Part shown: positions 7,100 through 24,690 of the stretch, one piece after another
Position numbering within the stretch: position 1 is the stretch's first letter
How the letters are laid out: each line of letters starts with the position of its first letter
From: Thermoleophilaceae bacterium
GTDB taxonomy: Bacteria; Actinomycetota; Thermoleophilia; Solirubrobacterales; Thermoleophilaceae
Direction: 5' to 3'
NCBI GenBank assembly: GCA_019683805.1
Contig: JADGHQ010000021.1
Location: forward strand, 1 to 36,971
Length of the DNA stretch: 36,971 bases
The notes under the pieces: model-generated
Database searches by the model: none
Told to the model about the DNA's origin: nothing
Seen by the model: only the letters and a program-made list of their open reading frames with translations
Translations under genes and position numbers: made by a program

Positions 7100-7105
7100 G
7101 GCCCG

Positions 7106-7111
7106 ACGATA
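7106..7111 (-). promoter_or_regulatory. Candidate -10 element of a leaderless LuxR-family gene
   Basis: TATCGT fits TANNNT and is separated by 6 bp from the GTG at 7099, so transcription would begin at or next to the start codon. No clear -35 is visible. Confidence 0.45.
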
Positions 7112-7227
7112 CCTGGGGACCGCCCCGCCAAAGCCTGCGGTTCTTCCTACGGGCGGTCCTCGTCGCGGGTGATGGGCGCCGGGTCGATCCTCCGGCCATC
7201 GCCCACGACCCCGAGAGGAGAGACGCC

Positions 7228-8628: not shown

Positions 8629-8647
8629 GCGAACGCCTCCATGCTGC

Positions 8648-8676
8648 CGAGCGGCGCCCGAGCAGGGCGCCGCTCG
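8648..8676. terminator. Bidirectional GC hairpin between convergent genes
   Basis: A perfect 12-bp stem (8648-8659 with 8665-8676) and a 5-nt loop sit in the 55-bp gap between the convergent exporter and SDR genes. There is no T tract on either strand. The position suits a terminator for both genes. Confidence 0.6.
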
Positions 8677-8683
8677 ACGGCGC

Positions 8684-9445
8684 CTAGTCGATCAGCGCGC
8701 CGCAGCTGATGTTGACGGTCGCCGCGGTCATGGTGCGCGCCCGGTCGGAGGCGGCGAACGCGGCCGCAGCGCCCACGTCCTCGAGCGTCGCGGCCCGCCC
8801 GAGCATCGTCGCCTTCTCGATCCCTTCGACGATCGCCTCGCGCCGGTCGCGGTCGAAGTCCGGGGGGAGCGTCTCGGGCACGCCGCCCGTGCGCAGGGTC
8901 ACGACGCGCACGCCGTGCGGCCCGAGCTCGGCGGCCAGCTGCCGCCGCATCGCCTCGATGGCGTGGAGCGCGACCTGGAAGCCCCCGATGTAGTGGTCGC
9001 GCAGCGGGTCGCCCGCCCCGCCGAACGCCAGGATCACGCCCGATCGCTGCCGGATCATGTGGCGGGCGGCCGCCCGCGAGGTCAGGAACGTCGTCCTGAC
9101 GGCGGTCACGATCGGCCGCTCGAAGTCCTCGAGCTCCATCTCCGCGAGCGGCGTCCCCTGGACGTCCCCGTACGAGATCAGGTTGAAGGAGATGTCGACG
9201 CTCCCGGCCTCGCGGGCCACGGCAGCGGCGTGCTCGTCGACCGCCTTCCCGTCGAGCGCGTCGACCTGCGCGGTCTCGGCCGCTCCCCCCGCGGAGCGAA
9301 TCGCTTCGGCCACCTCCTCGAGCTTCTCCCGCGTGCGGCCGGCGAGGAAGACCCTCGCCCCCTCGCGGGCGAACGCCCGGGCGACCGCTCCGCCGACCGC
9401 GCCACCGCCTCCGTAGATCACGGCGTTCTTGCCGTCGAGCAACAC
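8684..9445 (-). CDS. SDR-fold protein lacking the canonical catalytic residues
   Basis: This 253-aa protein has the short-chain dehydrogenase fold. The N-terminal dinucleotide-binding region is YGGGGAVGGA (11-20), AGRT follows strand 2, and the C-terminus has the family-typical SDRARTMTAATVNISCG. The active site is degenerate. The usual YxxxK is replaced by IGGFQ (153-157) in the same register, no Lys is present there, and the catalytic Ser region reads ILAFGG. NNAG is replaced by NLIS. Similar actinobacterial SDRs with GGFQVAL seem to form a subfamily, so the loss may be functional rather than decay. The GTG start at 9445 follows AGGAGG with a 7-nt spacer. It faces the MFS gene convergently. 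The reaction, if any, is unknown. Confidence 0.85.
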   Translation of the reverse strand: MLLDGKNAVIYGGGGAVGGAVARAFAREGARVFLAGRTREKLEEVAEAIRSAGGAAETAQVDALDGKAVDEHAAAVAREAGSVDISFNLISYGDVQGTPLAEMELEDFERPIVTAVRTTFLTSRAAARHMIRQRSGVILAFGGAGDPLRDHYIGGFQVALHAIEAMRRQLAAELGPHGVRVVTLRTGGVPETLPPDFDRDRREAIVEGIEKATMLGRAATLEDVGAAAAFAASDRARTMTAATVNISCGALID

Positions 9446-9608
9446 CTCGAAACCTCCTGCTTGTCGGATTCCGTCGTCTATGACCTCCGGAGGTCGCGGG
9501 GCTCATCGGTCCGCTCGGGCCGGCGACCCCTGGGCGGCTTCGGCCGCGGGCCGGCTCGCGAGGCCGGTCGGCGTCGCGGGGGTGGGGCTCCGGTGTGCTC
9601 GCGGGGGC

Positions 9609-11673: not shown

Positions 11674-11894
11674 CCGCCTCTGTGCCGGACGAACTCGCCG
11701 CTGTCCGGTCCAGAGCCGCAGCTGCGCCGGATCGTGCTCGGGTCTACGCCGGCACGGGAGCGGTGCAGCTAGGTGATCCTCATGACCATCGAGCGGTTCC
11801 GGTTCGGCGGCGGGCGCCGCCGCGGCGACCAGGCGTCAGGCGGCGCCGGGCGACTCCTCCGGGTCGCGATCTGCGCGCGCAAGCCAGAGCGTGA
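11670..11894 (+). other. Unrecognised 74-codon frame coupled to the exporter stop
   Basis: This frame starts with ATG overlapping the exporter stop as ATGA and reads MTASVPDELAAVRSRAAAAP before becoming Arg/Pro-rich. The first ~38 residues look protein-like. The rest does not, and it runs 59 bp into the convergent kinase gene. It could be the remnant of a downstream operon gene or chance. I do not recognise it, and the 162 bp before the kinase hold nothing else supportable. Confidence 0.2.
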
Positions 11895-13137
11895 CGACCG
11901 GGGGGCTGGGCTCGGTGAGGGCGAGCCGCCCGCCTTCGGCGTGGGCGAGGGCTTGCGCTAGCGCCAGGCCGATGCCATGGCCGTCTCGGGATTCGCGTCG
12001 GCGGCTGAAGACCTGCTCGCCGGCCCCCGCGAAGCCAGGGCCCTGGTCGCCGACGTCGACGGCGAGCCATCCGTCGCTGGCGCGCAGGGTGACGGTCACC
12101 GCGCCGCCGCCGTGGCGGTGGGCGTTGTCGAGCAGCACGTCGAGGATCTCGGCGACGACGGCGGGGGCGGCGCGGGCGGCGCGCTCGCCGGTGCGTCGGA
12201 GGACGCGGAGCGGGCGGCCGGCACTGGCCAGCGGGCCGCGCCAGCGATTCTCGAGATCGTCGAGCAGGGCGGCGAGGTCGGACTCGGCGACAGGGCGCGG
12301 CTCGTCGCGGGCGACGGCCAGCAGCGTGTCGATGGTGGCCTGGAGCCGGTCGACCTGAGCGATGGCGCGCTCCAGCTCGGGCGGCGCGTCGCCGCGCAGC
12401 TCGATCGCCTCGAGCTCGATGCGCAGCGCGGCGAGCGGCGTGCGCAGCTGGTGCGAGGCGTCGGCGCTGAAGGCGCGCTCGCGCGCGATCAGGGCACCCA
12501 GGCGACTGGCGGTGTCGTCGAGCGCCGTGGCGATCTGGTCGGCCTCCCGGACCCCGCCGCGGGGTGCGCGGGCGGCGAAGTCCCCGTCGCCGAGGCGCCG
12601 CGCGGCGGCCGCGAGCCGCTCGAGCGGGCGCGCCAGGCGCCGGCCCAGCAGGGCCGCGGCGATCGCGGCAAGCGCGACGAGGAGCGCCGCCAAGCCGATC
12701 AGCGCCAACCAGGCGCTGTGTGTCGCGCGCGCTGCGGCGGCATCGCTGCGCTCGGCCCGTAGGACGCCGGTCACCCGCTCTCGGGCGAGCAGCGGGACGG
12801 CGGCTACCAGTCGCGGGCCCTGGGCACGGTCGGCGGGCGATCCGGCGCCCAGCGCGGCTCGCACCGGCCCGTCGGCGCGGGCGGGGCCATGGCCGGCGAC
12901 GCGCCGGCCGGCCGTGTCGTACACCGCGAGCCGGTCCCGGCTGACCGGCAGCTCCAGGGGATCGCGACCGGGAGTCCCGATGTCGACGACGCGGGTGGCG
13001 GCGATGGTGTCGCGCTGGAGGCGGAGCAGATCCTCGTTGCGGTAGCTGTGCTTAAGCACGAGCGCCAGCGGCAGCGCGAAGAGGATCACGGCGGCCGCGG
13101 CGACGCCGGCGATCGCGAGCATCAGGCGCTGTCGCAC
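11836..13137 (-). CDS. Two-component sensor histidine kinase (HAMP type)
   Basis: This 433-aa membrane kinase has TM1 at about 7-29, an extracytoplasmic region of about 112 residues, TM2 at about 142-165 and a HAMP linker to about 218. The H-box is FSADASHQLRTPLAAL with His229. The ATPase domain has the N-box LLDNAHRHGGG and glycine boxes DQGPGF and GHGIGLALAQ. It should phosphorylate the regulator encoded just upstream. The GTG start at 13137 overlaps that gene by 16 bp and has GAGG 4 nt before it. An ATG at 13122 forming TGATG is the alternative. The signal is unknown; the adjacent ABC/lipoprotein operon suggests envelope stress or an exported compound. Confidence 0.9.
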   Translation of the reverse strand: MRQRLMLAIAGVAAAAVILFALPLALVLKHSYRNEDLLRLQRDTIAATRVVDIGTPGRDPLELPVSRDRLAVYDTAGRRVAGHGPARADGPVRAALGAGSPADRAQGPRLVAAVPLLARERVTGVLRAERSDAAAARATHSAWLALIGLAALLVALAAIAAALLGRRLARPLERLAAAARRLGDGDFAARAPRGGVREADQIATALDDTASRLGALIARERAFSADASHQLRTPLAALRIELEAIELRGDAPPELERAIAQVDRLQATIDTLLAVARDEPRPVAESDLAALLDDLENRWRGPLASAGRPLRVLRRTGERAARAAPAVVAEILDVLLDNAHRHGGGAVTVTLRASDGWLAVDVGDQGPGFAGAGEQVFSRRRESRDGHGIGLALAQALAHAEGGRLALTEPSPPVVTLWLARADRDPEESPGAA

Positions 13138-13811
13138 GGGACCTCGAGACGGTAGCCGACGCCTCGCAGCGTGGTGATGGCGTCGGGGCCGAGCCGACGG
13201 CGCAGCGCGAGGATGTGGGTGTCGAGCGTCTTGGTCGAGCCGAGCCAGTCGGTGTCCCACACCTCGCGCATGATCCGCTCGCGGGTGACCGCGCGACCGG
13301 CCTCGGCGACGAGCAGCGCGAGCAGATCGAACTCCTTGGGACGCAGGTCGAGCTCGTCGCCGCCTCGCCACGCGCGTCGTGAGGCGCGGTCGACCGTGAC
13401 GTCTCCGGCGCGCAGCGGCTCGTCGGCGCCGGCCGGGGCCGACGCCGCGGCGCGTCGCAGGTGCGCGCGCACGCGCGCGAGCAGCTCGGCCAGGCGGAAC
13501 GGCTTGACCAGGTAGTCGTCGGCGCCGGCGTCCAGCCCGGCGACGACGTCGAGCTCCTGGTCGCGGGCGGTGAGGATCAGGATCGCGAGCTCGGGCCGCG
13601 CGCGGCGCAGGCGCCGGCAGATGTCGATGCCGTCGGCATCGGGCAGGCCGAGGTCGAGGATGACCAGGCTCGTCGTGTCGTCGGCGGCACCGAGCGCCGG
13701 CCCGCCACGGGCGAGGCGCCGGACCGCGTAGCCCTGGCTGTCGAGGACGCGCACGAGGCCCGAGGCGATCGCCTCGTCGTCTTCGACCAGCAGGATGCCG
13801 GAAGGGCTCAC
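13122..13811 (-). CDS. OmpR/PhoB-family response regulator
   Basis: This 229-aa regulator has a receiver domain with acidic pocket Glu10-Asp11-Asp12, phosphoacceptor Asp53 (LVILDLGLPDADG) and Lys103 in LVKPF. The C-terminal winged helix ends in ALRRRLGPDAITTLRGVGYR. The GTG start at 13811 has no good Shine-Dalgarno, but TACCGT (13820-13825) is 8 bp upstream, suggesting a leaderless message. Four GACC half-sites at 11-bp spacing (13856-13892) lie upstream of this promoter and before the divergent lipoprotein/ABC operon. They are the natural candidate for its own binding site. Confidence 0.92.
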   Translation of the reverse strand: MSPSGILLVEDDEAIASGLVRVLDSQGYAVRRLARGGPALGAADDTTSLVILDLGLPDADGIDICRRLRRARPELAILILTARDQELDVVAGLDAGADDYLVKPFRLAELLARVRAHLRRAAASAPAGADEPLRAGDVTVDRASRRAWRGGDELDLRPKEFDLLALLVAEAGRAVTRERIMREVWDTDWLGSTKTLDTHILALRRRLGPDAITTLRGVGYRLEVPCDSA

Positions 13812-13819
13812 GCACCCTG

Positions 13820-13847
13820 ACGGTATCGCCTCCCGCGCGGCTGTCGG
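13820..13847 (-). promoter_or_regulatory. Candidate promoter of the first response regulator gene
   Basis: On the minus strand, CCGACA (13842-13847) and TACCGT (13820-13825) are separated by 16 bp and match -35 and -10 elements moderately. TACCGT is 8 bp before the GTG at 13811, so the mRNA would have little or no leader. The GACC repeats lie directly upstream of this -35, a typical activator position. Confidence 0.45.
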
Positions 13848-13851
13848 CGAG

Positions 13852-13895
13852 GTTTGACCCGGCGTTGACCTGACGCGGACCTCGCGCTGACCGGC
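13852..13895. promoter_or_regulatory. Four phased GACC direct repeats, candidate OmpR-type regulator site
   Basis: GACC begins at 13856, 13867, 13878 and 13889, an exact 11-bp period, within 11-mers resembling CGYTGACCNGN. OmpR-family regulators bind tandem direct repeats spaced one helical turn apart. The array lies in the 132-bp divergent region between the response regulator gene and the lipoprotein/ABC operon, so one site could control both directions. Confidence 0.6.
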
Positions 13896-13943
13896 GCGTG
13901 CGACGGTGCGTGTCGATCGATGTCGGCGTTACTCGGAGGTCTC

Positions 13944-14534
13944 ATGTCCACGCGCACCACGCTGGGTCTCGGGGCGGTCGTCCTGGCGCTTGCCGCAGCC
14001 GGTTGCGGCGGCGGGTCGGCTGCGGGCGGCGGGCAGGCGAGCGCGCCGAACGCGCCGGAGACCAGTCCGCCGGGCGACATCCCGGACAACCAGGCGTACG
14101 TGCGGTACGCGCCGCCCCACGCGGGCTATTCGCTCGAGGTGCCGGAGGGCTGGTCGCGCACGAGGACGGGCGCGGCGGTGTCCTTCACCGACAAGCTCAA
14201 CACCGTGCGCCTCGAGGAGCGGTCGGCTGCGGCCCCGCCGACGGTCGCCGGCGTCAAGCGGACGGTGCTGCCCCAGCTCGCGCGCACCGAGGCCGGCTTC
14301 AAGGCCGGGACCGTGACCACCGTCCGCCGCAAGGCCGGTCCGGCGGTGCGCATCGCCTACCTGGCCCGCGGCAAGCCCGACCCGGTGACGGGCACGGCGC
14401 GCGTGGACGCGGTGGAGCGCTACCTGTTCTTCCACAACGGGCGCGAGGCGATCGTCACGCTGAGCGGGCCCAAGGGCGCCGACAACGTCGACCCCTGGCG
14501 GATCGTCACGGACTCGCTGCGGTGGACGCGATGA
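13944..14534 (+). CDS. Predicted lipoprotein at the head of the ABC operon
   Basis: This 196-aa lipoprotein has the lipobox LAAAGC after a short hydrophobic core, then a Gly/Ala/Ser/Pro linker. The remaining domain contains YSLEVPEGWSRT, a pattern seen in PsbP-like/DUF1795-type secreted proteins, though the match is weak. The ATG at 13944 follows GGAGG with a 4-nt spacer; an earlier in-frame ATG at 13920 has none. Its stop overlaps the ATPase start (ATGA). It could be an accessory or sensing subunit for the ABC system, holding a substrate outside the membrane. The role is inferred from position. Confidence 0.85.
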   Translation: MSTRTTLGLGAVVLALAAAGCGGGSAAGGGQASAPNAPETSPPGDIPDNQAYVRYAPPHAGYSLEVPEGWSRTRTGAAVSFTDKLNTVRLEERSAAAPPTVAGVKRTVLPQLARTEAGFKAGTVTTVRRKAGPAVRIAYLARGKPDPVTGTARVDAVERYLFFHNGREAIVTLSGPKGADNVDPWRIVTDSLRWTR

Positions 14535-15196
14535 GCGCCGTGCTCGAAGCACGATCGCTGTATCGCTTCTACCACGCCGGCGACGAGGAGACGCTGGCGC
14601 TCCAGGGCGTCTCGCTCGAAGTCGACCGCGGCGAGGTCCTCGCCGTGACGGGCCCGTCGGGCTCGGGCAAGTCGACGCTGCTGGCCGTGCTCGCCGGGCT
14701 CGACGAGCCCGACGGCGGCGTGGTCCGCATCGAGGACGAACGCCTGTCGCGCCGCCCCGAGGAGCAGCGCGCCGACATCCGCGCGCGCCTGCTCGGCGTC
14801 GTCTACCAGCAGGCGAACCTCATCGGGCACCTGTCGGTGGAGGACAACGTCGCGCTCGCGCAACGCCTCGGCCGGCGGGCGGGCTCGAGCGACCGGCGGC
14901 GCCGGGTGCTCGAGCGCTGCGGGATCGCCAGTCGCGCGCACGCGCTGCCCTCGCAGCTGTCGGGCGGCGAGCTGGCTCGCGCGGGGCTGGCGGTCGCGCT
15001 GGCCAACGACCCGGCCGTGGTGCTCGCCGACGAGCCCACCGGCGAGCTCGACCAGCACACCGCCGCCCGCGTGCTCGAGCTGCTGCGCGAGCACGCCGAG
15101 GCCGGCACGGCCGTCCTGATCGTCACCCACTCGCCCGAGGTCGCCGCGGTCGCCGACCGCGAGATACGCCTGCGCGACGGCAGGGTCGAGCCATGA
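14531..15196 (+). CDS. ABC ATPase of the LolD/MacB type (first)
   Basis: This 221-aa ATPase has Walker A GPSGSGKST (41-49), a Q-loop VVYQQANL, signature LSGGE (143-147), Walker B VVLADE (163-168), the subfamily-typical DEPTGELD and H-loop His200. This subfamily works with FtsX/MacB-type permeases in extracting or exporting molecules from the membrane. It is coupled by ATGA overlaps to the lipoprotein before it and a second, different ATPase after it. The two ATPases may form a heterodimer beneath the single permease. Confidence 0.92.
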   Translation: MSAVLEARSLYRFYHAGDEETLALQGVSLEVDRGEVLAVTGPSGSGKSTLLAVLAGLDEPDGGVVRIEDERLSRRPEEQRADIRARLLGVVYQQANLIGHLSVEDNVALAQRLGRRAGSSDRRRRVLERCGIASRAHALPSQLSGGELARAGLAVALANDPAVVLADEPTGELDQHTAARVLELLREHAEAGTAVLIVTHSPEVAAVADREIRLRDGRVEP

Positions 15197-15867
15197 GCGC
15201 GCTGGTGACCTGCGTCGGCGCCGGGCGCACCTACGGCAGCGGCGCGACGGCCACCGTCGCGCTGCAGCCGACCGACTGCGCCGTCGAGGAGCGGGCGCGG
15301 ATCGCGATCATGGGGCCGTCCGGCTCGGGCAAGTCGACGCTGCTGCACCTCCTCGCCGGCCTCGACGACCCGACCGTGGGGACGGTCGCGTGGCCGGCGA
15401 TCGGGGACCGCGGCGCCCTTCGCCCGGGCCCGGTCGCGGTGATCTTCCAGGGGCCCAGCCTGCTGCCACCGCTCACCGTGGAGGAGAACGTAGCCCTGCC
15501 GCTGATCCTGGCCGGCGAGCGCGACGCCGAAGCGCGGATGGCGGCCCGGTCGGCACTGGAGCTCGTCGATCTGCTCGACCTCCGTCACAAGCTGCCCGAG
15601 GAGATCTCCGGTGGGCAGGCGCAGCGCGTCGCGATCGCGCGGGCGCTCGCCGGCCGCCCGCGGCTGATCCTCGCCGACGAGCCCACCGGGCAGCTTGACC
15701 GCGCGAGCGCGGCTGCGGTCGTCGACGTCCTGCTCGCCGCCGCCGAGCACGGCGATGCGGCGCTTGTGGTGGCCACGCACGACCCGCTGGTCGCGGACCG
15801 CCTACCCGAGCGCTGGCAGATGCGCAGCGGCCGGCTCGAGACCAGGGAGGCGGCATGGTCGCGCTGA
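15193..15867 (+). CDS. ABC ATPase of the LolD/MacB type (second)
   Basis: This 224-aa ATPase has Walker A GPSGSGKST (41-49), Q-loop VIFQGPSL, signature ISGGQ (138-142), Walker B LILADE (158-163), DEPTGQLD and H-loop His196. All catalytic motifs are intact, as in the first ATPase, so neither looks like a dead partner. The sequences differ clearly, so this is not a recent tandem copy. Its ATG overlaps the first ATPase stop (ATGA), and its own 3' end overlaps the permease start by 13 bp. Confidence 0.92.
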   Translation: MSALVTCVGAGRTYGSGATATVALQPTDCAVEERARIAIMGPSGSGKSTLLHLLAGLDDPTVGTVAWPAIGDRGALRPGPVAVIFQGPSLLPPLTVEENVALPLILAGERDAEARMAARSALELVDLLDLRHKLPEEISGGQAQRVAIARALAGRPRLILADEPTGQLDRASAAAVVDVLLAAAEHGDAALVVATHDPLVADRLPERWQMRSGRLETREAAWSR

Positions 15868-18494
15868 CCTGGCTGCACGGACTGGTCAGGCATCGCCGCG
15901 GCCGTCTGCTCGCGACCGTCGTCGGCGTGGCCGTCGGCGTGGCGCTGATCGCGTCGATCGGGTCGTTCTTGTCCTCGACGACATCGCAGATGAGCGCACG
16001 GGCGATTGCCCGGGTCCCCGTCGACTGGCAGGTCGAGGCCCAGCACGGCGCCGATCCACAGCGCCTGCTCGAGCGGGTGGCGCGCTTTCCCGGCGTCCGC
16101 CGCGCGTTGCCCGTGAGCTTCGCCGACACCACCGGGCTGCAGGCGCGGACCGGCGGGTCGGTCCAGCGCACCGGCCCCGGCAAGGTCCTCGGCCTGCCCG
16201 CGGGCTACGCGCAGGCCTTCCCCGGCGAGCTGCGTACGCTGTCGGGCCGCGGCAGCGGGGTCCTGCTTGCGCAGCAGACGGCGGCCAACCTGCACGCGCG
16301 CCCGGGCGACACCGTGACGATCGGCGGCGCGCGCGGGCGCCCCAAGGTCAGGGTCGAGGGCGTCGTCGACCTGCCCGCGGCCGACTCGCTGTTCCAGCAG
16401 GTCGGCGCGCCGGCCGGCGCGCAGCCGCAGGCGCCGCCCGACAACGTCATCCTCCTGCCGGCGGCGCTCTTCAGGCGCCTCGAGGGTCGGGCCGTCACGC
16501 AGATCCACGCGGCTCTCGATCATCGCCTGCCCGGTAGTCCCGCGGCGGCCTTCACGGCCGTCAACGGCAGGAAGCTCAACCTCGAGACCCGCCTGGCCGG
16601 GGCGGGCCTCGTGGGCGACAACCTCGGCACCGCGCTGGACCAGGCACGCCAGGACGCGCTCTACGCGCAGCTTCTGTTCCTCTTCCTCGGTGTGCCCGGC
16701 GCGGTCGTCGCCGGCCTGGTCACCGCGACGATTGCCTCCGCGGGCGCCGGCCGGCGCCGGCGCGACGCGGCGCTGCTGCGCACCCGCGGCGCCTCGACGC
16801 GCCAGCTCGTGCGGATCGCGCTCACCGAGACCGGGTCGGTCGCCGCCCTGGGCATAGCCGCCGGGCTCGGCGCAGCGCTGTTGATCGGCTCGACGCAGTT
16901 CGGGACTGCGACCTTCGGCGCCAGCACGCTCGCCGCGATCCTCTGGCCAAGCGGGGCCGCGCTCGCCGGCCTCTTGATCGCGGGCGGCGCTATCGCGCTC
17001 CCAGCGTGGCGCGACGCGCGGAGCCTCACCGTCGCCGGACAGCGCCGGCACGTCGGTCGCGACGACCGCGTGCCGTGGTGGGCGCGCGCCGGCGTGGACT
17101 TCCTGTGCCTCGCCGGGGCGGCATTGGTCTACTGGCAGGCCTCGCGCAACGGTTACAACCTGGTGCTGGCCCCCGAGGGCGTCCCGCAGATCTCGGTCAA
17201 CTGGTACGCGCTGCTGGCGCCCCTGCTCGGCTGGATCGGCGCCGGCCTGCTCGCCTACCGCATCGCCGACCTCGTGCTCGTCCGCGGCCGCACGCCCCTG
17301 GCGCGCCTCTTCCGGCCGCTGGCCGGCGAGCTGGCGCCGACGGTCGCGGCGACGATGCGCCGCCAGCGTCGGCTGCTCGCGCGAGCCGGCACGCTGGTCG
17401 CGCTGACCGCGGCTTTCGCCGCCTCCACCGCCGTGTTCAACTCGACCTACAAGCAGCAGGCCGAGGTCGACGCGCGGCTGACCAACGGCGCCGACGTCAC
17501 GGTGACCGAGTCGCCGGGCGCGCGCGTGGGTCCCGGGGACGGGGCGCGCCTGGCCCGCGTGCCGGGCGTGAAGAGCGTCGAGCCGCTGCAGCACCGCTTC
17601 GCCTACGTCGGCGCCGACCTGCAGGACCTCTACGGCGTGCGCCCGCAGACGATCGGCGCCGCCGGCAGGCTGCAGAGCTCGTGGTTCCAGGGCGGCACCG
17701 CGAAGCAGCTGATTGCCACGCTCGCGCGACGGCCCGACTCCGTGCTCGTCGCCGCGGAGACCGTCAAAGACTTCCAGCTGCAGCCCGGCGACACGCTGCG
17801 CCTGCGCCTGCAGAACGGTCGCACCAAGCAGTTCACCACCGTGCCGTTCCACTACGTCGGCGTCGCCAAGGAGTTCCCGACCGCGCCGACGGACTCGTTC
17901 CTGGTCGCGAACGCCGACTATGTCGCCAAGCGGACCGGCAGCGACGCGGTCGGCACCTTCCTGGTGCAGACCGACGGCACGCCGCCGAAGCAGGTGGCCG
18001 CGCGCCTGCGCACGACCGTCGGCACCTCCGCGCAGGTAACCGACATCCAGACCTCGCGGCGCGTGGTCGGCTCGAACCTGACGGCGGTCGAGCTGTCCGG
18101 GCTCACGAAGGTCGAGCTGGGCTTCGCGCTCGTGTTGGCCGCGGCGGCAAGCGGGCTCACGCTCGGGCTCGGGCTGCAGGAGCGGCGACGCACGTTCGCG
18201 ATCGCCGCCGCGCTCGGCGCCCGTGCGCGCCAGCTCGGCGGATTCGTGTGGAGCGAATCGGCGTTCGTCACCGGCGGCGGCCTCGCGCTCGGCGCACTCA
18301 TCGCCGTCGTCATCTCCGAGATGCTCGTCAAGGTGCTCACCGGGGTCTTCGACCCGCCGCCCGACGCGCTCGCTGTCCCGTGGGGCTACCTGCTCGCCGT
18401 CGCCACGCTCGTCGTCGGCGCGGTGGCGACCGCCGGGGCGATCGTCCTGCGGGCTCTGCGCCGGCCACCGATCGAGGAGCTCCGCGACCTGTAG
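15855..18494 (+). CDS. ABC permease with two FtsX/MacB-type halves
   Basis: This 879-aa permease has about ten membrane helices. A first helix at about 17-40 is followed by an extracytoplasmic domain to about 275 and a cluster of helices. After a second start helix (near ALTAAFAASTAVF) come another extracytoplasmic domain and three final helices. This two-half arrangement is known from YbbP-type permeases, which act as a complete transmembrane unit. The ATG at 15855 follows GGGAGG with a 4-nt spacer. Probable role: ATP-driven transport or extraction of a hydrophobic or peptide-like molecule at the outer face of the membrane, possibly resistance. The substrate is unknown. Confidence 0.9.
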   Translation: MVALTWLHGLVRHRRGRLLATVVGVAVGVALIASIGSFLSSTTSQMSARAIARVPVDWQVEAQHGADPQRLLERVARFPGVRRALPVSFADTTGLQARTGGSVQRTGPGKVLGLPAGYAQAFPGELRTLSGRGSGVLLAQQTAANLHARPGDTVTIGGARGRPKVRVEGVVDLPAADSLFQQVGAPAGAQPQAPPDNVILLPAALFRRLEGRAVTQIHAALDHRLPGSPAAAFTAVNGRKLNLETRLAGAGLVGDNLGTALDQARQDALYAQLLFLFLGVPGAVVAGLVTATIASAGAGRRRRDAALLRTRGASTRQLVRIALTETGSVAALGIAAGLGAALLIGSTQFGTATFGASTLAAILWPSGAALAGLLIAGGAIALPAWRDARSLTVAGQRRHVGRDDRVPWWARAGVDFLCLAGAALVYWQASRNGYNLVLAPEGVPQISVNWYALLAPLLGWIGAGLLAYRIADLVLVRGRTPLARLFRPLAGELAPTVAATMRRQRRLLARAGTLVALTAAFAASTAVFNSTYKQQAEVDARLTNGADVTVTESPGARVGPGDGARLARVPGVKSVEPLQHRFAYVGADLQDLYGVRPQTIGAAGRLQSSWFQGGTAKQLIATLARRPDSVLVAAETVKDFQLQPGDTLRLRLQNGRTKQFTTVPFHYVGVAKEFPTAPTDSFLVANADYVAKRTGSDAVGTFLVQTDGTPPKQVAARLRTTVGTSAQVTDIQTSRRVVGSNLTAVELSGLTKVELGFALVLAAAASGLTLGLGLQERRRTFAIAAALGARARQLGGFVWSESAFVTGGGLALGALIAVVISEMLVKVLTGVFDPPPDALAVPWGYLLAVATLVVGAVATAGAIVLRALRRPPIEELRDL

Positions 18495-18508
18495 AGGAGC
18501 GTGCTCGC

Positions 18509-18598
18509 ATGGTCCACCTTGCCGCCACGCGCACGCCGACCCGGGCCAGCCCGCGACCACCGCGACGACGCCCGCCCGGGCAGCGGGGCCGGCGGTGA
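18509..18598 (+). CDS. Possible 29-residue Arg/Pro-rich leader peptide
   Basis: An ATG at 18509 with GAGGAG 9 nt upstream opens a 29-codon frame whose TGA overlaps the GTG of the second response regulator (GTGA). The peptide has nine Arg and six Pro, including PP and PPG sequences that can slow ribosomes. It could be a leader coupling or tuning translation of the regulator. Without expression evidence it may equally be a chance frame in GC-rich DNA, although the well-placed ribosome site and the overlap argue for translation. Confidence 0.35.
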   Translation: MVHLAATRTPTRASPRPPRRRPPGQRGRR

Positions 18599-19278
18599 CA
18601 CCGGCCCGGGTTCTCGTCGTCGAGGACGACCGCGACCTGGCCGGCGCGCTCGAGCTGGAGCTGTCGCACGCCGGTTACGCCGTGCGCAGCGTAGGCGACG
18701 GCCCGGCGGCGCTGCGGGCCGAGCAGGAATGGAAGCCCGAGCTCGTGCTGCTCGACCTCGGCCTGCCGAGCCTGGACGGGCTCGAGGTCTGCCGGCGCCT
18801 GCGCGCCGCCACCCGCGCGCCGATCCTCATCCTCACCGCCCGCGACGCGATCACCGACCGCGTCCGCGGACTGGACGCCGGCGCCGACGACTACGTGGTC
18901 AAGCCGTTCTCGCTCGACGAGCTGATGGCGCGCGTGCGCTCCGCGCTGCGCCGTGCCCGGCTGCGCGAGGAGGGCCAGCGGCTGCGCGCCGGCGATCTCG
19001 AGCTCGACGCGGCCGCGCGCACCGTCACGCGAGGGGAGTGCCCGATCGACCTCACGCGACGCGAGTTCGACCTGCTCGAGTGCCTGCTGCGCCACCCGGG
19101 CCAGGTGCTCGACCGCGCCACCCTGCTGGCCGACGTCTGGGGCTATGACTTCCTGGGCGGCTCCAACGTCGTCGACGTCTACGTGCGCTATCTGCGCGCC
19201 AAGATCGAGCGGCCCGACGAGCCGCGGTTGATCGAGACCGTGCGCGGGATCGGCTACGTGCTGCGCCCTCCGCGATGA
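18595..19278 (+). CDS. OmpR/PhoB-family response regulator (second)
   Basis: This 227-aa regulator has receiver residues Glu10-Asp11-Asp12, phosphoacceptor Asp54 (LVLLDLGLPSLDG) and Lys103 (VVKPF). The winged helix contains RREFDLLECLLRHPG and ends VRGIGYVLRPP. GTG at 18595 is the only start in this frame just before the conserved sequence; it overlaps the stop of the small Arg/Pro-rich frame and has no strong ribosome site of its own. It sits 100 bp after the permease on the same strand and overlaps the kinase gene by 4 bp. It is a different subfamily member from the first regulator, so the ABC module is flanked by two separate signal systems. Confidence 0.92.
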   Translation: MTPARVLVVEDDRDLAGALELELSHAGYAVRSVGDGPAALRAEQEWKPELVLLDLGLPSLDGLEVCRRLRAATRAPILILTARDAITDRVRGLDAGADDYVVKPFSLDELMARVRSALRRARLREEGQRLRAGDLELDAAARTVTRGECPIDLTRREFDLLECLLRHPGQVLDRATLLADVWGYDFLGGSNVVDVYVRYLRAKIERPDEPRLIETVRGIGYVLRPPR

Positions 19279-20684
19279 CCCGGCTCGGCATCAGCGCCCG
19301 TTTCGCGCTGCTGAGCGCCGCGCTCGTCCTGGCGATCGCCGCGCTCGTCGGCGTCGGCGGCTACCTCGCCCTGCGCCAGTCTCTGCTCACTCGCGCCCAG
19401 CACGAGGCGCGGGACCAGGCCCGCCAGCTCGTCGCTCTGATCGACGTCGGTGGCGAGGGCGACGCCGGACGCCGGCAGGCCAACCAGGTCGACGTCCGCG
19501 ATCCATCGCTCACCGGCGGCTTCACGCGCGGCGGCGTGCTCGTCGGCATCCTGCGCCCCGACGGCACGCGCATCCAGGCCTCCCCGGGGGCCTCCCCCCT
19601 CCCGGGCCGGATGCGCGCAAGCTGCCTGCGCGCCGGCCACGCTCAGGCGCGCACAGCCCAGCTCGCGCTCGCCTGCGCCCGCGTCGGCCCCGCCCGCCGC
19701 CCGGCCGCGCTCGTCGCCGTCGGCGCCCCGCTCCGCGACGCGCGTCACGCCCTCGCCCGCCTCGCCCAGGCGCTCGCCCTCGGCGTCCTCGCCGGCACGC
19801 TGCTGGCGGCCGCGCTCGCGCGCGCGGTCGCCGACCGCGCGCTCCGGCCCGCCCGCCGCATCGCGCAGGCCGCGAGCTCGATCCAGTCCGGGGACCTGAC
19901 CCGGCGCATCGACTATCAGGGCCCGCGCGACGAGCTGGGCGAGCTCGCCGACGTCCTCGACGCCTGTTTCGCCGAGCTGGAGCAGGGCGTCGAGCGCCAA
20001 CGCCGCTTCGTCGCCGACGCCTCCCACGAGCTGCGCACGCCGCTGGCCACCATCCAGGCGCACGTCGAGCTCCTGCGAGGGTGGGCACACGAGAGCCCCG
20101 CCGCTCGCGAGACCGCTCTGGCCGCGCTCGACCAGGCCAGCCGCGCCGCCGGGCGGATGGGCACCGATCTGCTCTACCTCGCCCAGCTCGACCGACTCCC
20201 GCCCCAGCGGCGCGCTCCGGCCCAGCTCGACCAGATCGTCATCGACGCGGTCCGCGAGGCACAGCCGTTGCGCCCCGAGATCCCGATCCGCATCACGCGA
20301 CTCGACGAGCTGCGGCTCACCGCCGACGAGCTCGCGCTGCGCCAGCTCCTGGTCGACCTGCTGGCCAACGCGCTGCGCGTCAGCCCGGCCTCCACCGAGG
20401 TGACCGTCGAGCTCGCCACCGACGAGCACACAGCCACCGTCACCGTCAGCGACCACGGACCCGGCATCCCTCCCGAGGCGCTCGGGCGCATCTTCGAACG
20501 CTTCTACACCACCGCCCCGCGCCGATCCGGCAGCTCCGGCCTCGGCCTGGCCATCGCCCGCGAGATCGCCCGCCGCCATGGCGGCGACGTGCGCGCCGCG
20601 AACCGCCCCGACCGCGGCGCCGTCTTCCTTGTCGAGCTCCCGATCCAGACCGCTCTCACCGAATCCGCACCCGGCTCTCCCTGA
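19275..20684 (+). CDS. Two-component sensor histidine kinase (second)
   Basis: This 469-aa kinase has TM1 at about 10-32, an extracytoplasmic region of about 130 residues containing Cys117 and Cys134, TM2 at about 165-184, a HAMP linker, and the H-box FVADASHELRTPLATI with His251. The ATPase domain has the N-box DLLANALRVSP, DHGPGIP, the F-box IFERFYTT and GLGLAIAREI. The ATG overlaps the regulator stop (ATGA). The cysteine pair could form a disulfide or bind metal in the sensor domain. A small exported protein gene follows 54 bp downstream. Confidence 0.92.
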   Translation: MTRLGISARFALLSAALVLAIAALVGVGGYLALRQSLLTRAQHEARDQARQLVALIDVGGEGDAGRRQANQVDVRDPSLTGGFTRGGVLVGILRPDGTRIQASPGASPLPGRMRASCLRAGHAQARTAQLALACARVGPARRPAALVAVGAPLRDARHALARLAQALALGVLAGTLLAAALARAVADRALRPARRIAQAASSIQSGDLTRRIDYQGPRDELGELADVLDACFAELEQGVERQRRFVADASHELRTPLATIQAHVELLRGWAHESPAARETALAALDQASRAAGRMGTDLLYLAQLDRLPPQRRAPAQLDQIVIDAVREAQPLRPEIPIRITRLDELRLTADELALRQLLVDLLANALRVSPASTEVTVELATDEHTATVTVSDHGPGIPPEALGRIFERFYTTAPRRSGSSGLGLAIAREIARRHGGDVRAANRPDRGAVFLVELPIQTALTESAPGSP

Positions 20685-20738
20685 GCCCTAATCGCGCTCG
20701 CATACGGTCCGAGGCGTCCACCACGAAGGAGGTACGGC

Positions 20739-21062
20739 ATGGCCAGAGCCATCCGTCCGACGCTGCTGCTGTTGCTCGCCGCAGCGGCCATCACCATGGC
20801 GCTGCTGCTGACCGGAGCGCTCGGCAGCTCGGCTCCCACCGCCGCCGGGGCGCCCCAGACCACGCAGGTCATCGACCGCGACAACGTCCAGGCCGGCGAT
20901 CAGACCGCCCCTGACAGCTCCTCGGCCGAGCAGGAGAACGGGGGCGAGAACGAGAGCGCCGACGAGCCGGCGGGCGAGGCCCAGCCCGGCCACGAGGACC
21001 CGCAGGGCCGGCAGGTGGACCACCAGTGCCCGCCTGACTGCGCCCCCGGCGAGCTGCCGTAG
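20739..21062 (+). CDS. Small exported or membrane-anchored acidic protein
   Basis: This 107-aa protein has an N-terminal hydrophobic segment (about residues 8-28) that could be a signal peptide or anchor. A low-complexity acidic Glu/Asp/Gly/Ser region follows, then a C-terminus with HQCPPDCAPGELP, where two Cys flank PPD. No family is recognised. The ATG at 20739 has an excellent AAGGAGGT 5 nt upstream, and TACGGT at 20703-20708 could be its own -10. Its place directly after the second kinase suggests a role in, or regulation by, that system; this is inference from position only. Confidence 0.75.
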   Translation: MARAIRPTLLLLLAAAAITMALLLTGALGSSAPTAAGAPQTTQVIDRDNVQAGDQTAPDSSSAEQENGGENESADEPAGEAQPGHEDPQGRQVDHQCPPDCAPGELP

Positions 21063-21271: not shown

Positions 21272-22309
21272 ATGAGCCCCGAGGCTGCCAGATCCGCTTC
21301 GTGCTGCGGTCCCTCACGCGCGGGCTCCGAATCGGCCGGGGTCGGCGAGGAGGGAGCTGGCCTGCCGGCCCGGCCGCCGGTCGCCGAATCGAGTCGGCCT
21401 CCGGGGCCCCCGGAGATGGTTTCGCTGGAGGGCGGCGCGTTCCTGATGGGAGCCGATGGCCCGGAGTGCATCGCCTCCGACCGCGAGGGGCCGGTGCGCG
21501 AGGTCGAGGTCAGCGCCTTCTCGATCGACCCCTGCGCCGTCTCGAACGGTCGCTTCGCCGTGTTCGCCGACGCGACCGATTACGTCACGGACGCCGAGCG
21601 CTACGGCTGGTCGTTCGTCTTCGGCGGCCTGCTCCCCGACGAGTTCCCAGACACCCGCGGCGTCATCCAGGCGCCGTGGTGGCGCCAGGTCTACGGCGCC
21701 TGCTGGCGCCAACCCGAGGGGCCGCACTCCTCGATCGACGATCGCCTCGACCATCCCGTCGTTCACGTGTCCTGGCGCGACGCGGAGGCTTTCTGTCGCT
21801 GGAGCGGGGTGAGGCTGCCGTCCGAGGCCGAGTGGGAGCACGCGGCTCGCGGCGGCCTGGTCCAGAAGCGCTTTCCCTGGGGAGATGAGCTGGAGCCGGG
21901 CGGAGAGCACCGCATGAACGTCTGGCAGGGAACGTTCCCGTCGCAGAACACGCTCGGGGACGGCTACCTGGGCACCTGTCCAGTCGACGCGTTCCCCGCC
22001 AACGGGTATGGGCTTCACAACACGACCGGCAACGTATGGGAATGGTGCGCGGACCTCTTCTTCGCCGGTCCCCTCGGCGACCTGCCGCACCCGGTCGATC
22101 CCGCGGACTCGGCGGGCGAGGAGGCGAGGGTAACCCGTGGCGGCTCCTACCTCTGCCACCACTCCTATTGCAACCGCTACCGGGTCGCGGCCCGGAGCTC
22201 CAACACGGCGAGCACCTCGACGGGAAATACGGGATTCAGATGCGCCCGCGACGCGGAGCCCGCGTCAGTTCCGGCTGTAGTGGCGCCGCCCGGACGAAGC
22301 CACACCTAG
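21272..22309 (+). CDS. Formylglycine-generating enzyme (sulfatase-modifying factor)
   Basis: This 345-aa enzyme oxidises the active-site Cys of sulfatases to formylglycine in the cytoplasm, using a Cu(I) site and O2. The FGE domain runs from about residue 49 (MVSLEGGAFLMG) to 327. The copper-binding pair Cys295 and Cys300 is present in GGSYLCHHSYCNRYRVAARS, almost the same as in the Streptomyces coelicolor enzyme as I recall it. These Cys separate true FGE from relatives such as EgtB. The N-terminal 48 residues are low-complexity apart from an adjacent Cys pair (Cys11-Cys12). The next gene, 8 bp away, is a Cys-type sulfatase, its expected substrate. Confidence 0.93.
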   Translation: MSPEAARSASCCGPSRAGSESAGVGEEGAGLPARPPVAESSRPPGPPEMVSLEGGAFLMGADGPECIASDREGPVREVEVSAFSIDPCAVSNGRFAVFADATDYVTDAERYGWSFVFGGLLPDEFPDTRGVIQAPWWRQVYGACWRQPEGPHSSIDDRLDHPVVHVSWRDAEAFCRWSGVRLPSEAEWEHAARGGLVQKRFPWGDELEPGGEHRMNVWQGTFPSQNTLGDGYLGTCPVDAFPANGYGLHNTTGNVWEWCADLFFAGPLGDLPHPVDPADSAGEEARVTRGGSYLCHHSYCNRYRVAARSSNTASTSTGNTGFRCARDAEPASVPAVVAPPGRSHT

Positions 22310-22317
22310 GGGGCGAA

Positions 22318-24690
22318 ATGAGCAGCGAGAGCAACAAGATCAAGCGCGAGGTCTTGCCGATTCCCGACCTGCCCTATGGGGGCCCGATCACCTACGACGC
22401 GAAGGATCCCGACACGTCCTTCCCTCCGATCGAGCCGCTTCGTCCACCCGCGGGGGCGCCCAACGTCCTCGTCGTCCTGCTCGACGACGTCGGCTTTGCG
22501 GGGGCCAGCGCCTTCGGCGGCCCCTGCGAGACGCCGGTCGCCGAGGCCTTGGCTGCCGAGGGGCTCAAGTACACCCGCTTCCACACCACCGCGCTCTGCT
22601 CTCCGACCCGCGCCGCGTTGCTCAGCGGCCGCAACCACCACTCCGTGGGCATGGGCGGGATCACCGAGATGGCCACCTCGGCGCCGGGCTACAGCTCGGT
22701 TCGGCCCAACACCGCGGCGCCGCTGGCCGAGACGCTGAAGCTGAACGGCTTCTCGACCGCCCAGTTCGGCAAGTGCCACGAGGTCCCGGTCTGGGAGACC
22801 AACCCGATGGGCCCCTTCGACGCGTGGCCCTCCCGCGGCGGCGGCTTCGAGCACTTCTACGGCTTCGTCGCCGGCGAGACGAACCAGTATTACCCGGCGC
22901 TCTACGACGACACCGTCGCGGTCGAGCCCGACCGCACGCCGGAGGAGGGTTACCACCTGACGGAGGACCTCGCCGACAGGGCGATCGAGTGGGTCCGGGA
23001 GCTGAAGTCGCTGATGCCGGACAAGCCCTTCTTCATGTACTTCGCGCCGGGCGCGACCCACGCTCCCCACCACGTCCCCGAGGAGTGGTCGGCCAAATAC
23101 AAGGGCCGCTTCGACGCCGGCTGGGACGCGCTGCGCGAAGAGATCCTGGTGCGGCAGAAGGAGCTCGGCGTCGTGCCGTCGGACGCGGTCCTGACCGAGC
23201 GCCCGGAGGAGATCCCAGCCTGGGAGGAGATGCCAGAGGACCTGAAGCCGGTGCTGGCGCGCGAGATGGAGATCTACGCCGGCTTCCTCGAGCACACCGA
23301 CCACCAAGTCGGCCGGCTGATCGAGACCCTGCGCGCCCTGGAGGTGCTCGAGGACACGCTCGTCTATTACATCGTTGGCGACAATGGGGCCTCCGCCGAG
23401 GGCACCGTCAACGGCACCTTCAACGAGGCCTTCACCTTCAACGCCGCCAACGCGCTGGAGACGCCGGAGATGCTCGCCGCCAAGATCGACGAGCTGGGCA
23501 CGCCGTCTGCCAACAACCACTTTGCGGTCGGCTGGGCGCACGCGCTGGACACGCCCTACAAATGGACCAAGCAGGTCGCCTCCCATTGGGGCGGGACGCG
23601 CAACGGCACCGTCGTGCACTGGCCCGCCGGAATCGAGGCCAGGGGCGAGATCCGCACCCAGTTCAGCCACGTGATCGACATCGCCGCGACCGTGCTCGAC
23701 GCGGCGGGACTGCCGCAGCCGACCTTCGTCCACGGCGTCCAGCAGATGCCCCTGCACGGCAAGAGCATGCTGCCGAGCTTCGCCGACGCCGACGCCCCCG
23801 AGCACAGCGAGACGCAGTACTTCGAGATGTTCGTCAACCGCGGCATCTACCACAAGGGCTGGACCGCGGCGACCCGGCACAGCACCCCGTGGCTGGTGGG
23901 CGCCGAGCTGCCGGCCCTCGAAGCCGACGTTTGGGAGCTTTACGCCCCTGACGACTGGACCCAGTCCAACGACCTCTCCGCCGAGCAGCCCCAGAAGCTG
24001 CACGAGCTGCAGCGGCTGTTCCTGATCGAGGCGACCAGGTACGGGGTGCTGCCGCTCGACGACCGCCGGGTCGAGCGCTTCGTACCTCAGATGGCCGGGC
24101 GGCCGAGCCTCGTCAAGGGGAGCTCGCAGCTGCTCTTCGGCGGCATGAGGAGGATCTCGGAGAACTCGGTGATCGTGATCAAGAACCGCTCCCACTCGGT
24201 TACGGCGCAGGTCGTCGTCCCCGAGGGCGGCGCCGAGGGAGTGATCATCGCCCAGGGCGGCGCCTTCGGCGGCTGGAGCCTCTACCTCACGGAGGGGCGC
24301 CCGACCTACTGCTACAACCTGCTCGGGATCGCGCGCTTCAGGGTCGCCGGCAGTGAGCCGCTGGACGCCGGCGAGCGCCAGGTGCGGATGGAGTTCGCCT
24401 ACGACGGCGGCGGCCTCGGCAAAGGCGGCGACGTCACCCTCTACGTCGACGGCGCCAAGGCCGGCGAGGGCCGCGTCGAGGGGACCATGCCGTTGATCTT
24501 CTCCGGCGACGAGACGACCGACCTCGGCACCGACACGGCGACGCCCGTCAGCGACGACTACGCCTTCAGCGAGCGCGCCTTCACCGGGAAGGTCGAGTGG
24601 GTCCAGATCGACGTCGACGCCGCCGCCGAGGATCCCGACCACCTGATCTCCCCGGAGGAGCGTCTACGGGTGGCGATGGCCCGCCAGTAG
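22318..24690 (+). CDS. Type I (formylglycine) arylsulfatase
   Basis: This 790-aa enzyme hydrolyses sulfate esters. The N-terminal sulfatase domain begins NVLVVLLDDVGF with metal ligands Asp56 and Asp57. The modification motif is C94-S-P-T-R98, where Cys94 should become formylglycine. A further metal-site sequence is GDNGASAEG. The C-terminal part, from about residue 610, looks like an all-beta domain. No signal peptide is visible, so the enzyme is probably cytoplasmic and modified by the FGE encoded 8 bp upstream. The ATG at 22318 follows AGGGGG with a 4-nt spacer. Likely role: sulfur scavenging from sulfate esters. The exact substrate is unknown and no transporter is adjacent. Confidence 0.93.
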   Translation: MSSESNKIKREVLPIPDLPYGGPITYDAKDPDTSFPPIEPLRPPAGAPNVLVVLLDDVGFAGASAFGGPCETPVAEALAAEGLKYTRFHTTALCSPTRAALLSGRNHHSVGMGGITEMATSAPGYSSVRPNTAAPLAETLKLNGFSTAQFGKCHEVPVWETNPMGPFDAWPSRGGGFEHFYGFVAGETNQYYPALYDDTVAVEPDRTPEEGYHLTEDLADRAIEWVRELKSLMPDKPFFMYFAPGATHAPHHVPEEWSAKYKGRFDAGWDALREEILVRQKELGVVPSDAVLTERPEEIPAWEEMPEDLKPVLAREMEIYAGFLEHTDHQVGRLIETLRALEVLEDTLVYYIVGDNGASAEGTVNGTFNEAFTFNAANALETPEMLAAKIDELGTPSANNHFAVGWAHALDTPYKWTKQVASHWGGTRNGTVVHWPAGIEARGEIRTQFSHVIDIAATVLDAAGLPQPTFVHGVQQMPLHGKSMLPSFADADAPEHSETQYFEMFVNRGIYHKGWTAATRHSTPWLVGAELPALEADVWELYAPDDWTQSNDLSAEQPQKLHELQRLFLIEATRYGVLPLDDRRVERFVPQMAGRPSLVKGSSQLLFGGMRRISENSVIVIKNRSHSVTAQVVVPEGGAEGVIIAQGGAFGGWSLYLTEGRPTYCYNLLGIARFRVAGSEPLDAGERQVRMEFAYDGGGLGKGGDVTLYVDGAKAGEGRVEGTMPLIFSGDETTDLGTDTATPVSDDYAFSERAFTGKVEWVQIDVDAAAEDPDHLISPEERLRVAMARQ

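What the first reader, a model, noticed from the sequence alone, without database searches (positions are those of the whole stretch)
11836..21062. Dual two-component, dual-ATPase ABC module
A lipoprotein, two distinct catalytically intact ATPases and one 10-TM double-FtsX permease lie between a divergent RR-HK pair and a collinear RR-HK pair, followed by a small exported protein. Bce-type resistance modules have one two-component system and one ATPase. Here two signals appear to converge on one transporter, and two ATPases may pair under its two halves. The lipoprotein and the small CPPDC-containing exported protein could be the sensing or substrate-holding parts. I know of no described system with exactly this layout, but cannot search.
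Basis: partly seen in the sequence, partly recalled or inferred. Interest (0 to 1): 0.62.

Follow-up and report, generated by a model that had tools for sequence, protein, structure and literature searches.

The report
Two-motor ABC machine with PsbP-fold partner

Summary
The genes are as described, with sharper boundaries: HK1-RR1 (divergent), lipoprotein (LP), ATPases A1 and A2, double-FtsX permease (P), then RR2-HK2 and a small exported protein (SM). Comparison splits this list. LP-A1-A2-P is a fixed unit: 55 of 56 relatives with enough DNA keep that order, and it recurs on plasmids of rhizobia, Paraburkholderia, Deinococcus, Chroococcidiopsis, Rhodococcus and Mycolicibacterium. A1 and A2 are separate old lineages with different signature and D-loop residues. 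P folds like E. coli YbbP, whose solved complex carries two copies of one ATPase. LP has a PsbP/Mog1/LpqN fold. RR1 belongs to one clade that stays beside the unit even when gene order changes; 11-bp tandem repeats ending 9 bp before a -10-like box suggest direct RR1 control. RR2-HK2 and SM are not conserved parts, so 'two signals converge' is unsupported, and the system is not Bce-type. PAP2 phosphatases and DUF347 proteins are strongly enriched beside relatives, pointing to lipid-phosphate or metal-linked envelope stress. Best reading: a type VII ABC machine with an obligate ATPase pair, probably a heterodimer under P, plus an extracytoplasmic partner. Substrate unknown. New variant of a known kind.

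The parts
11836..13122 (-). HK1, sensor histidine kinase, two TM helices with a loop of about 118 residues between them, HAMP-HisKA-HATPase
   Evidence: Pfam; hydropathy; HK1-like genes beside most relatives
13122..13811 (-). RR1, OmpR/PhoB-type response regulator
   Evidence: Pfam; one clade of 45 beside the unit, SH-aLRT 99
13854..13897 (+). Predicted RR1 operator: four tandem 11-bp repeats (TTGACC, TTGACC, CGGACC, CTGACC at 11-bp spacing)
   Evidence: binding not tested
13902..13907 (+). Predicted -10-like box (GACGGT), 9 bp after the last repeat hexamer
   Evidence: relatives have TASSGT at 9-10 bp
13944..14534 (+). LP, lipoprotein with PsbP/Mog1/LpqN fold
   Evidence: alignment, model pLDDT 85, fold search, co-occurrence with P
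14531..15196 (+). A1, ABC ATPase (LSGGE signature, GELD D-loop)
15193..15867 (+). A2, ABC ATPase (ISGGQ signature, GQLD D-loop)
15855..18494 (+). P, 879-aa double-FtsX permease, 10 TM, two MacB-type extracytoplasmic domains
18595..19278 (+). RR2, second response regulator; neighbour, not a conserved part
19275..20684 (+). HK2, second histidine kinase; neighbour, not a conserved part
20739..21062 (+). SM, small exported protein with CPPDC; no family match; neighbour

Best explanation
LP-A1-A2-P encodes one type VII ('mechanotransmission') ABC machine. P supplies both membrane halves in one chain, as YbbP does. Instead of two copies of one ATPase, one A1 and one A2 sit as a heterodimer under P's two coupling helices. 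LP on the outer face is the extracytoplasmic partner that receives, presents or is remodelled by the machine. ATP-driven closing of A1-A2 moves P's extracytoplasmic domains and so extracts or hands over a hydrophobic, probably lipid-linked, envelope compound. HK1 senses an envelope signal; RR1 binds the 11-bp repeats just before the -10 box and switches on LP-A1-A2-P. Shown: gene content, conserved order, folds by prediction, repeats. Inferred: heterodimer, LP-P contact, RR1 binding, direction, substrate. RR2-HK2-SM is taken as an independent neighbour.
For: Order LP-A1-A2-P in 55 of 56 loci with enough upstream DNA and on seven annotated plasmids from four phyla. In the 296-genome sample the 10 genomes with LP are the 10 with close P (p 8e-19). 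In plasmid loci the first ATPase is always nearer A1 and the second nearer A2; A1 and A2 form separate lineages. Overlapping genes, mostly -4, -4 and -13 bp, fit coupled, similar output of A1 and A2. P is nearest YbbAP (Z 22.5 over 731 residues), a 2:1:1 complex (PMC12646458). LP core matches PsbP/LpqN folds; it lacks a lipobox in diderm hosts. RR1 clade and repeats support RR1 control.
Against: No complex was tested; two homodimers serving P in turn are possible. Another double-FtsX permease in the genome has no ATPase close by and might borrow A1 or A2. Covariation between each ATPase and the coupling helices was uninformative (about 30 effective sequences). One locus (L026) lacks LP. Substrate and signal rest on neighbours that this genome's contig lacks.
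Confidence: 0.6

Rival explanations
1. One reading: a detoxification or sensing module in which two two-component systems converge on one transporter, in the manner of Bce systems.
For: Both pairs lie next to the unit in this genome; 17 of 59 relatives have two or more RR genes in the flanks; P also resembles BceB (Z 21.2).
Against: RR2-like genes lie within 1.5 kb downstream of P in only 4 of 46 loci and W_RR2 has no close relative there. HK1 has a long extracytoplasmic loop, unlike intramembrane-sensing Bce kinases. No RR1-type repeat pair elsewhere in the window.
Confidence: 0.07
2. Two ATPases act as alternative homodimers (A1-A1 or A2-A2) on P under different conditions, or one serves another permease, so there is no heterodimer.
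For: Both ATPases are catalytically intact; a double-FtsX permease without a nearby ATPase exists in the genome.
Against: A1 and A2 are translationally overlapped and never found apart among loci with enough DNA; both keep distinct signature and D-loop residues over four phyla, as expected of two unequal composite ATP sites.
Confidence: 0.25
3. The specific job is undecaprenyl-(pyro)phosphate or metal-linked envelope stress: the machine handles a lipid phosphate or a metal-lipid complex together with PAP2/UppP phosphatases and DUF347 proteins. This refines the best explanation rather than excluding it.
For: Among 60 loci of at least 12 kb PAP2 lies in 22, DUF347 in 21, DedA/VTT in 8, UppP in 4; background densities predict about 0.8 PAP2 genes and about 0.01 DUF347 genes in those flanks. 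DUF347 also co-occurs with P by genome (5 of 10 against 18 of 286, p 0.0004). Lead-induced UppP-DUF347 operons in Frankia (PMC4531530).
Against: The window's contig has no PAP2 and its genome no DUF347. Loci are not independent (PAP2 in about 18 genus-level groups). The Frankia link is expression plus its authors' conjecture.
Confidence: 0.35

Closest known systems
E. coli YbbAP-TesA (type VII ABC; PMC12646458)
   Same: Ten-TM pseudosymmetric permease with two MacB-type domains; best structural match over the whole chain; separate ATPase genes; an extracytoplasmic partner
   Different: YbbAP uses two copies of one ATPase and the hydrolase TesA; here two different ATPases and a PsbP-fold protein
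BceAB-BceRS bacitracin modules
   Same: 10-TM FtsX-type permease, neighbouring two-component system
   Different: Two ATPases, extracytoplasmic domain in both halves, kinase with a long extracytoplasmic loop
LolCDE and MacB
   Same: FtsX/MacB fold, LolD/MacB-class ATPases
   Different: Those pair two permease chains (LolC-LolE, or MacB twice) with one kind of ATPase
LpqN / PsbP / Mog1 / DcrB fold proteins
   Same: LP residues 56-204 share the fold (CyanoP Z 15.4, LpqN Z 10.8)
   Different: 9-16% identity, below the Pfam PsbP cut-off; LP has its own invariant GDI.D and DNVDPW motifs and stays with an ABC operon
PhoB-type pho box promoters
   Same: 11-bp direct repeats ending about 10 bp before the -10 box (pho box recalled from general knowledge)
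   Different: Different repeat sequence (TTGACC or TTAACC); four units; binding untested

Membership tests
Type VII ABC (MacB/FtsX superfamily) | FtsX-type permease with a MacB-like extracytoplasmic domain between TM1 and TM2 of each half | tested here: met
   Pfam FtsX and MacB_PCD twice each; model and fold search
Type VII ABC (MacB/FtsX superfamily) | LolD/MacB-class ATPase | tested here: met
   LolD, MacB, FtsE and YbbA models are among the best NCBIfam matches of A1 and A2, below equivalog cut-offs
YbbAP | 10-TM pseudosymmetric permease with two coupling helices | tested here: met
   Z 22.5 to 9ge7, 731 residues aligned; coupling segments at about 298-310 and 778-786
YbbAP | One kind of ATPase, present in two copies | tested here: not met
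   Two different ATPase genes in every complete locus; stoichiometry itself untested
YbbAP | TesA-type hydrolase partner encoded beside it | tested here: not met
   The adjacent exported protein has a PsbP fold
Bce-type module | Single ATPase gene | tested here: not met
   A1 and A2
Bce-type module | Large extracytoplasmic domain between TM7 and TM8 only | tested here: not met
   Domains in both halves; Bce topology in PMC5985334
Bce-type module | Histidine kinase without an extracytoplasmic sensor domain (general knowledge) | tested here: not met
   About 118 residues between TM1 and TM2 of HK1
ADOP duplicated permeases (TIGR03434) | Score above the curated cut-off | tested here: not met
   39.9 bits against 622.3
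PsbP/Mog1/LpqN fold | Fold of the core domain | tested here: met
   Z 15.4 to 2xb3, 10.8 to 6e5d
Pfam PsbP family (PF01789) | Score above the gathering cut-off | tested here: not met
   14.3 bits against 23.5 for LP; 15 of 45 members match weakly
Heterodimeric-ATPase ABC transporter | Physical A1-A2 dimer on P | not testable with these tools
   Only genetic evidence; covariation uninformative
PhoB/OmpR-type promoter activation | Tandem 11-bp repeats just upstream of the -10 box | tested here: met
   Chain score peaks only at 11-bp spacing over 52 loci (20 at or above 19, none in coding controls); regulator binding untested

The most novel reading that the evidence does not exclude
A horizontally mobile class of type VII ABC machines built on an obligate A1:A2 heterodimer under a YbbP-like double permease, working with interchangeable extracytoplasmic partners (PsbP-fold LP in the main branch, an unrelated lipoprotein family in a distant branch), for lipid-phosphate or metal-linked envelope stress. 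As far as the searches here show, it would be the first type VII ABC with two different ATPases.
Probability: 0.4. Interest if true: 0.72.

Novelty: new variant of a known kind. Interest (0 to 1): 0.56.

Why it matters
The type VII ABC machines compared here use one kind of ATPase as a symmetric pair. A natural, widely kept two-ATPase version under a pseudosymmetric permease would let one test whether the two halves do different mechanical work. The steady company of a PsbP-fold protein, the attached two-component system with a predicted operator, and the DUF347 and PAP2 neighbours give a testable route to the function of several poorly known families in soil bacteria and on large plasmids.

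Tried and rejected
Bce-type filing: rejected on three tested features. Anti-phage defence: PADLOC gave only generic ATPase matches for A1 and A2 and none for LP, P or SM. Phage records: no match. Fused A1-A2 genes: none among the loci. Covariation of each ATPase with the two coupling helices: no clear separation from control regions. CPPDC protein relatives: a pattern search over the loci held gave none credible; weak hits in L106 and L107 (38-41 bits) are low-complexity and were not used. An 11-bp repeat near RR2 or SM: none found. Literature: ten searches found no description of the layout; subscription journals and preprints are mostly not held, so absence is not proof. The M. tuberculosis Rv0986-0988 operon was considered from memory as similar in outline but not compared by sequence. 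Several ORFs chosen for the flanks of the window were antisense frames without matches.

Full report
WHAT IS THERE. The window lies in a draft genome (G000, 2.56 Mb in 134 contigs; window GC 73%) whose closest relatives of P are Solirubrobacterales. The lipoprotein most likely starts at 13944, just after a GGAGG ribosome site. A1 and A2 carry intact catalytic motifs. P matches FtsX and MacB_PCD twice each and, in a model with mean pLDDT 82.5, has ten TM helices in a 4+2+4 layout with an extracytoplasmic domain in each half.

THE CONSERVED UNIT IS LP-A1-A2-P. A scan of GTDB genomes with P gave 64 loci, nearly all Actinomycetota. Where enough upstream DNA exists, 55 of 56 keep LP, A1, A2, P in order on one strand; the exception, L026, lacks only LP. 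In 296 Actinomycetota genomes P was found in 13; the 10 with strong matches are exactly the 10 that have LP, and the three with weak matches (E near 1e-78) belong to a distant branch. Plasmids extend the range: 31 records of Rhizobium, Mesorhizobium, Agrobacterium, Bradyrhizobium, Paraburkholderia, Deinococcus, Chroococcidiopsis, Rhodococcus and Mycolicibacterium carry P, and seven annotated ones show the same four-gene order; one LP there is annotated 'PsbP-related protein'. That makes four phyla: Actinomycetota, Pseudomonadota, Deinococcota, Cyanobacteriota. Gene ends overlap in a recurrent way, mostly by 4, 4 and 13 bases.

TWO DIFFERENT ATPASES. In the plasmid loci the first ATPase is nearer A1 (52-61% against 34-42% to A2) and the second nearer A2 (46-60% against 36-41%). 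They differ at the ATP sites: A1 has LSGGE and an E before LD/VD; A2 nearly always SGGQ and usually Q there. A tree of 81 ATPases separates the two lineages, and even P relatives near 29% identity keep two ATPases. In that distant branch a different lipoprotein family sits directly before the ATPases (L095: 4811-5911, 5913-6587, 6584-7303, 7296-10415), so the plan 'extracytoplasmic partner, ATPase, ATPase, double permease' is wider than LP. As a contrast, the same genome has a double-FtsX permease with one ATPase beside it (L119) and another with none close by (L118).

STRUCTURE. P matches E. coli YbbAP best (Z 22.5, rmsd 7.3, 731 residues), then BceAB, LolCDE and MacB. The YbbAP paper reports two YbbA, one YbbP and one TesA, with coupling helices between TM2/3 and TM8/9 (PMC12646458); P has the equivalent helices. 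LP residues 56-204 match the PsbP/Mog1/LpqN/DcrB fold (CyanoP Z 15.4, LpqN Z 10.8). In the LPs of Rhizobium, Agrobacterium, Paraburkholderia, Deinococcus and Chroococcidiopsis the N-terminus looks like a secretion signal without a lipobox cysteine (read), whereas most actinobacterial LPs have one. This is what one expects of an extracytoplasmic partner that needs tethering only in cells without an outer membrane (inference).

REGULATION. RR1-type neighbours form one clade of 45 (SH-aLRT 99), although the pair is divergent in Solirubrobacterales, split around the operon in Streptomyces and convergent in Nonomuraea. Four 11-bp repeats lie between RR1 and LP at 13854-13897, the last hexamer 9 bp before GACGGT. 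Relatives have the same layout with TTGACC or, in Streptomyces and Streptosporangiales, TTAACC/CTAACC, often ending 9-10 bp before TASSGT. Over 52 loci the four-unit chain score peaks only at 11-bp spacing (mean 17.5 against 13.8-14.9 at other spacings and 13.7 in shuffles and coding controls). Loci with another two-component pair upstream (L104, L106, L107, L108) lack this motif; read by eye they have CTCAT-N6-CTCAT, also an 11-bp period, so operator and regulator seem to change together. The own genome has one other near match at C64, not pursued beyond its ORFs.

WHAT IS NOT PART. RR2 sits alone on a long branch; an RR2-like gene lies within 1.5 kb downstream of P in 4 of 46 loci. SM has no family match and no credible relative beside the unit. 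The 'dual two-component' reading therefore describes one genome, not the system. Second RR genes do occur in the flanks of 17 of 59 loci, but of mixed subfamilies.

FUNCTION. Recurrent neighbours of relatives are PAP2 phosphatases (22 of 60 loci of at least 12 kb), DUF347 membrane proteins (21), DedA/VTT proteins (8) and UppP (4), far above densities measured in 41 genomes; DUF347 also co-occurs with P by genome. PAP2-type UPP phosphatases, UppP and DedA proteins are known in undecaprenyl phosphate recycling (general knowledge), and UppP-DUF347 operons respond to lead in Frankia (PMC4531530). These point to lipid-phosphate or metal-linked envelope stress. The window's own contig lacks these neighbours, so the link is through relatives only and the loci are not independent.

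VERDICT. A real, widespread and apparently undescribed variant of type VII ABC machines. The heterodimer, the LP-P contact, RR1 binding and the substrate remain inference.

Noticed in passing
window 21272-24690: A formylglycine-generating-enzyme-like ORF (21272-22309) is followed by a large sulfatase ORF (22036-24690 as listed): a sulfatase with its likely activator.
   Followed up: partly
L118 (G000:C60:32000-44000), 4363-6948: An 861-aa double-FtsX permease lies between a CinA-like ORF, a 2'-5' RNA ligase-like ORF and recA, with no ATPase found in the 12-kb stretch.
   Followed up: partly
L094, L095, L096: In distant relatives of P an unrelated lipoprotein family with no Pfam match takes the place of LP directly before the two ATPases.
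   Followed up: partly
L099 (G017:C1:1198000-1214000): A genome of the same family holds only short fragments of P in two frames, which looks like a decayed copy.
   Followed up: no
L129 (Rhodococcus opacus B4 pROB01) 6911-9570: P is annotated as two overlapping ORFs, whereas a near-identical plasmid (L121) has it whole: frameshift or sequencing error.
   Followed up: no
L104, L106, L107, L108, upstream of LP: Where another OmpR-type pair replaces RR1-HK1 the promoter carries CTCAT repeats with an 11-bp period instead of TTGACC repeats (read by eye).
   Followed up: partly
L023, L028, L040, L041, L053, L060, L061: BlaI-like repressors (all seven) and M56-type peptidases (all but L061) recur near the unit in Streptomyces and Actinomadura relatives.
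   Followed up: no
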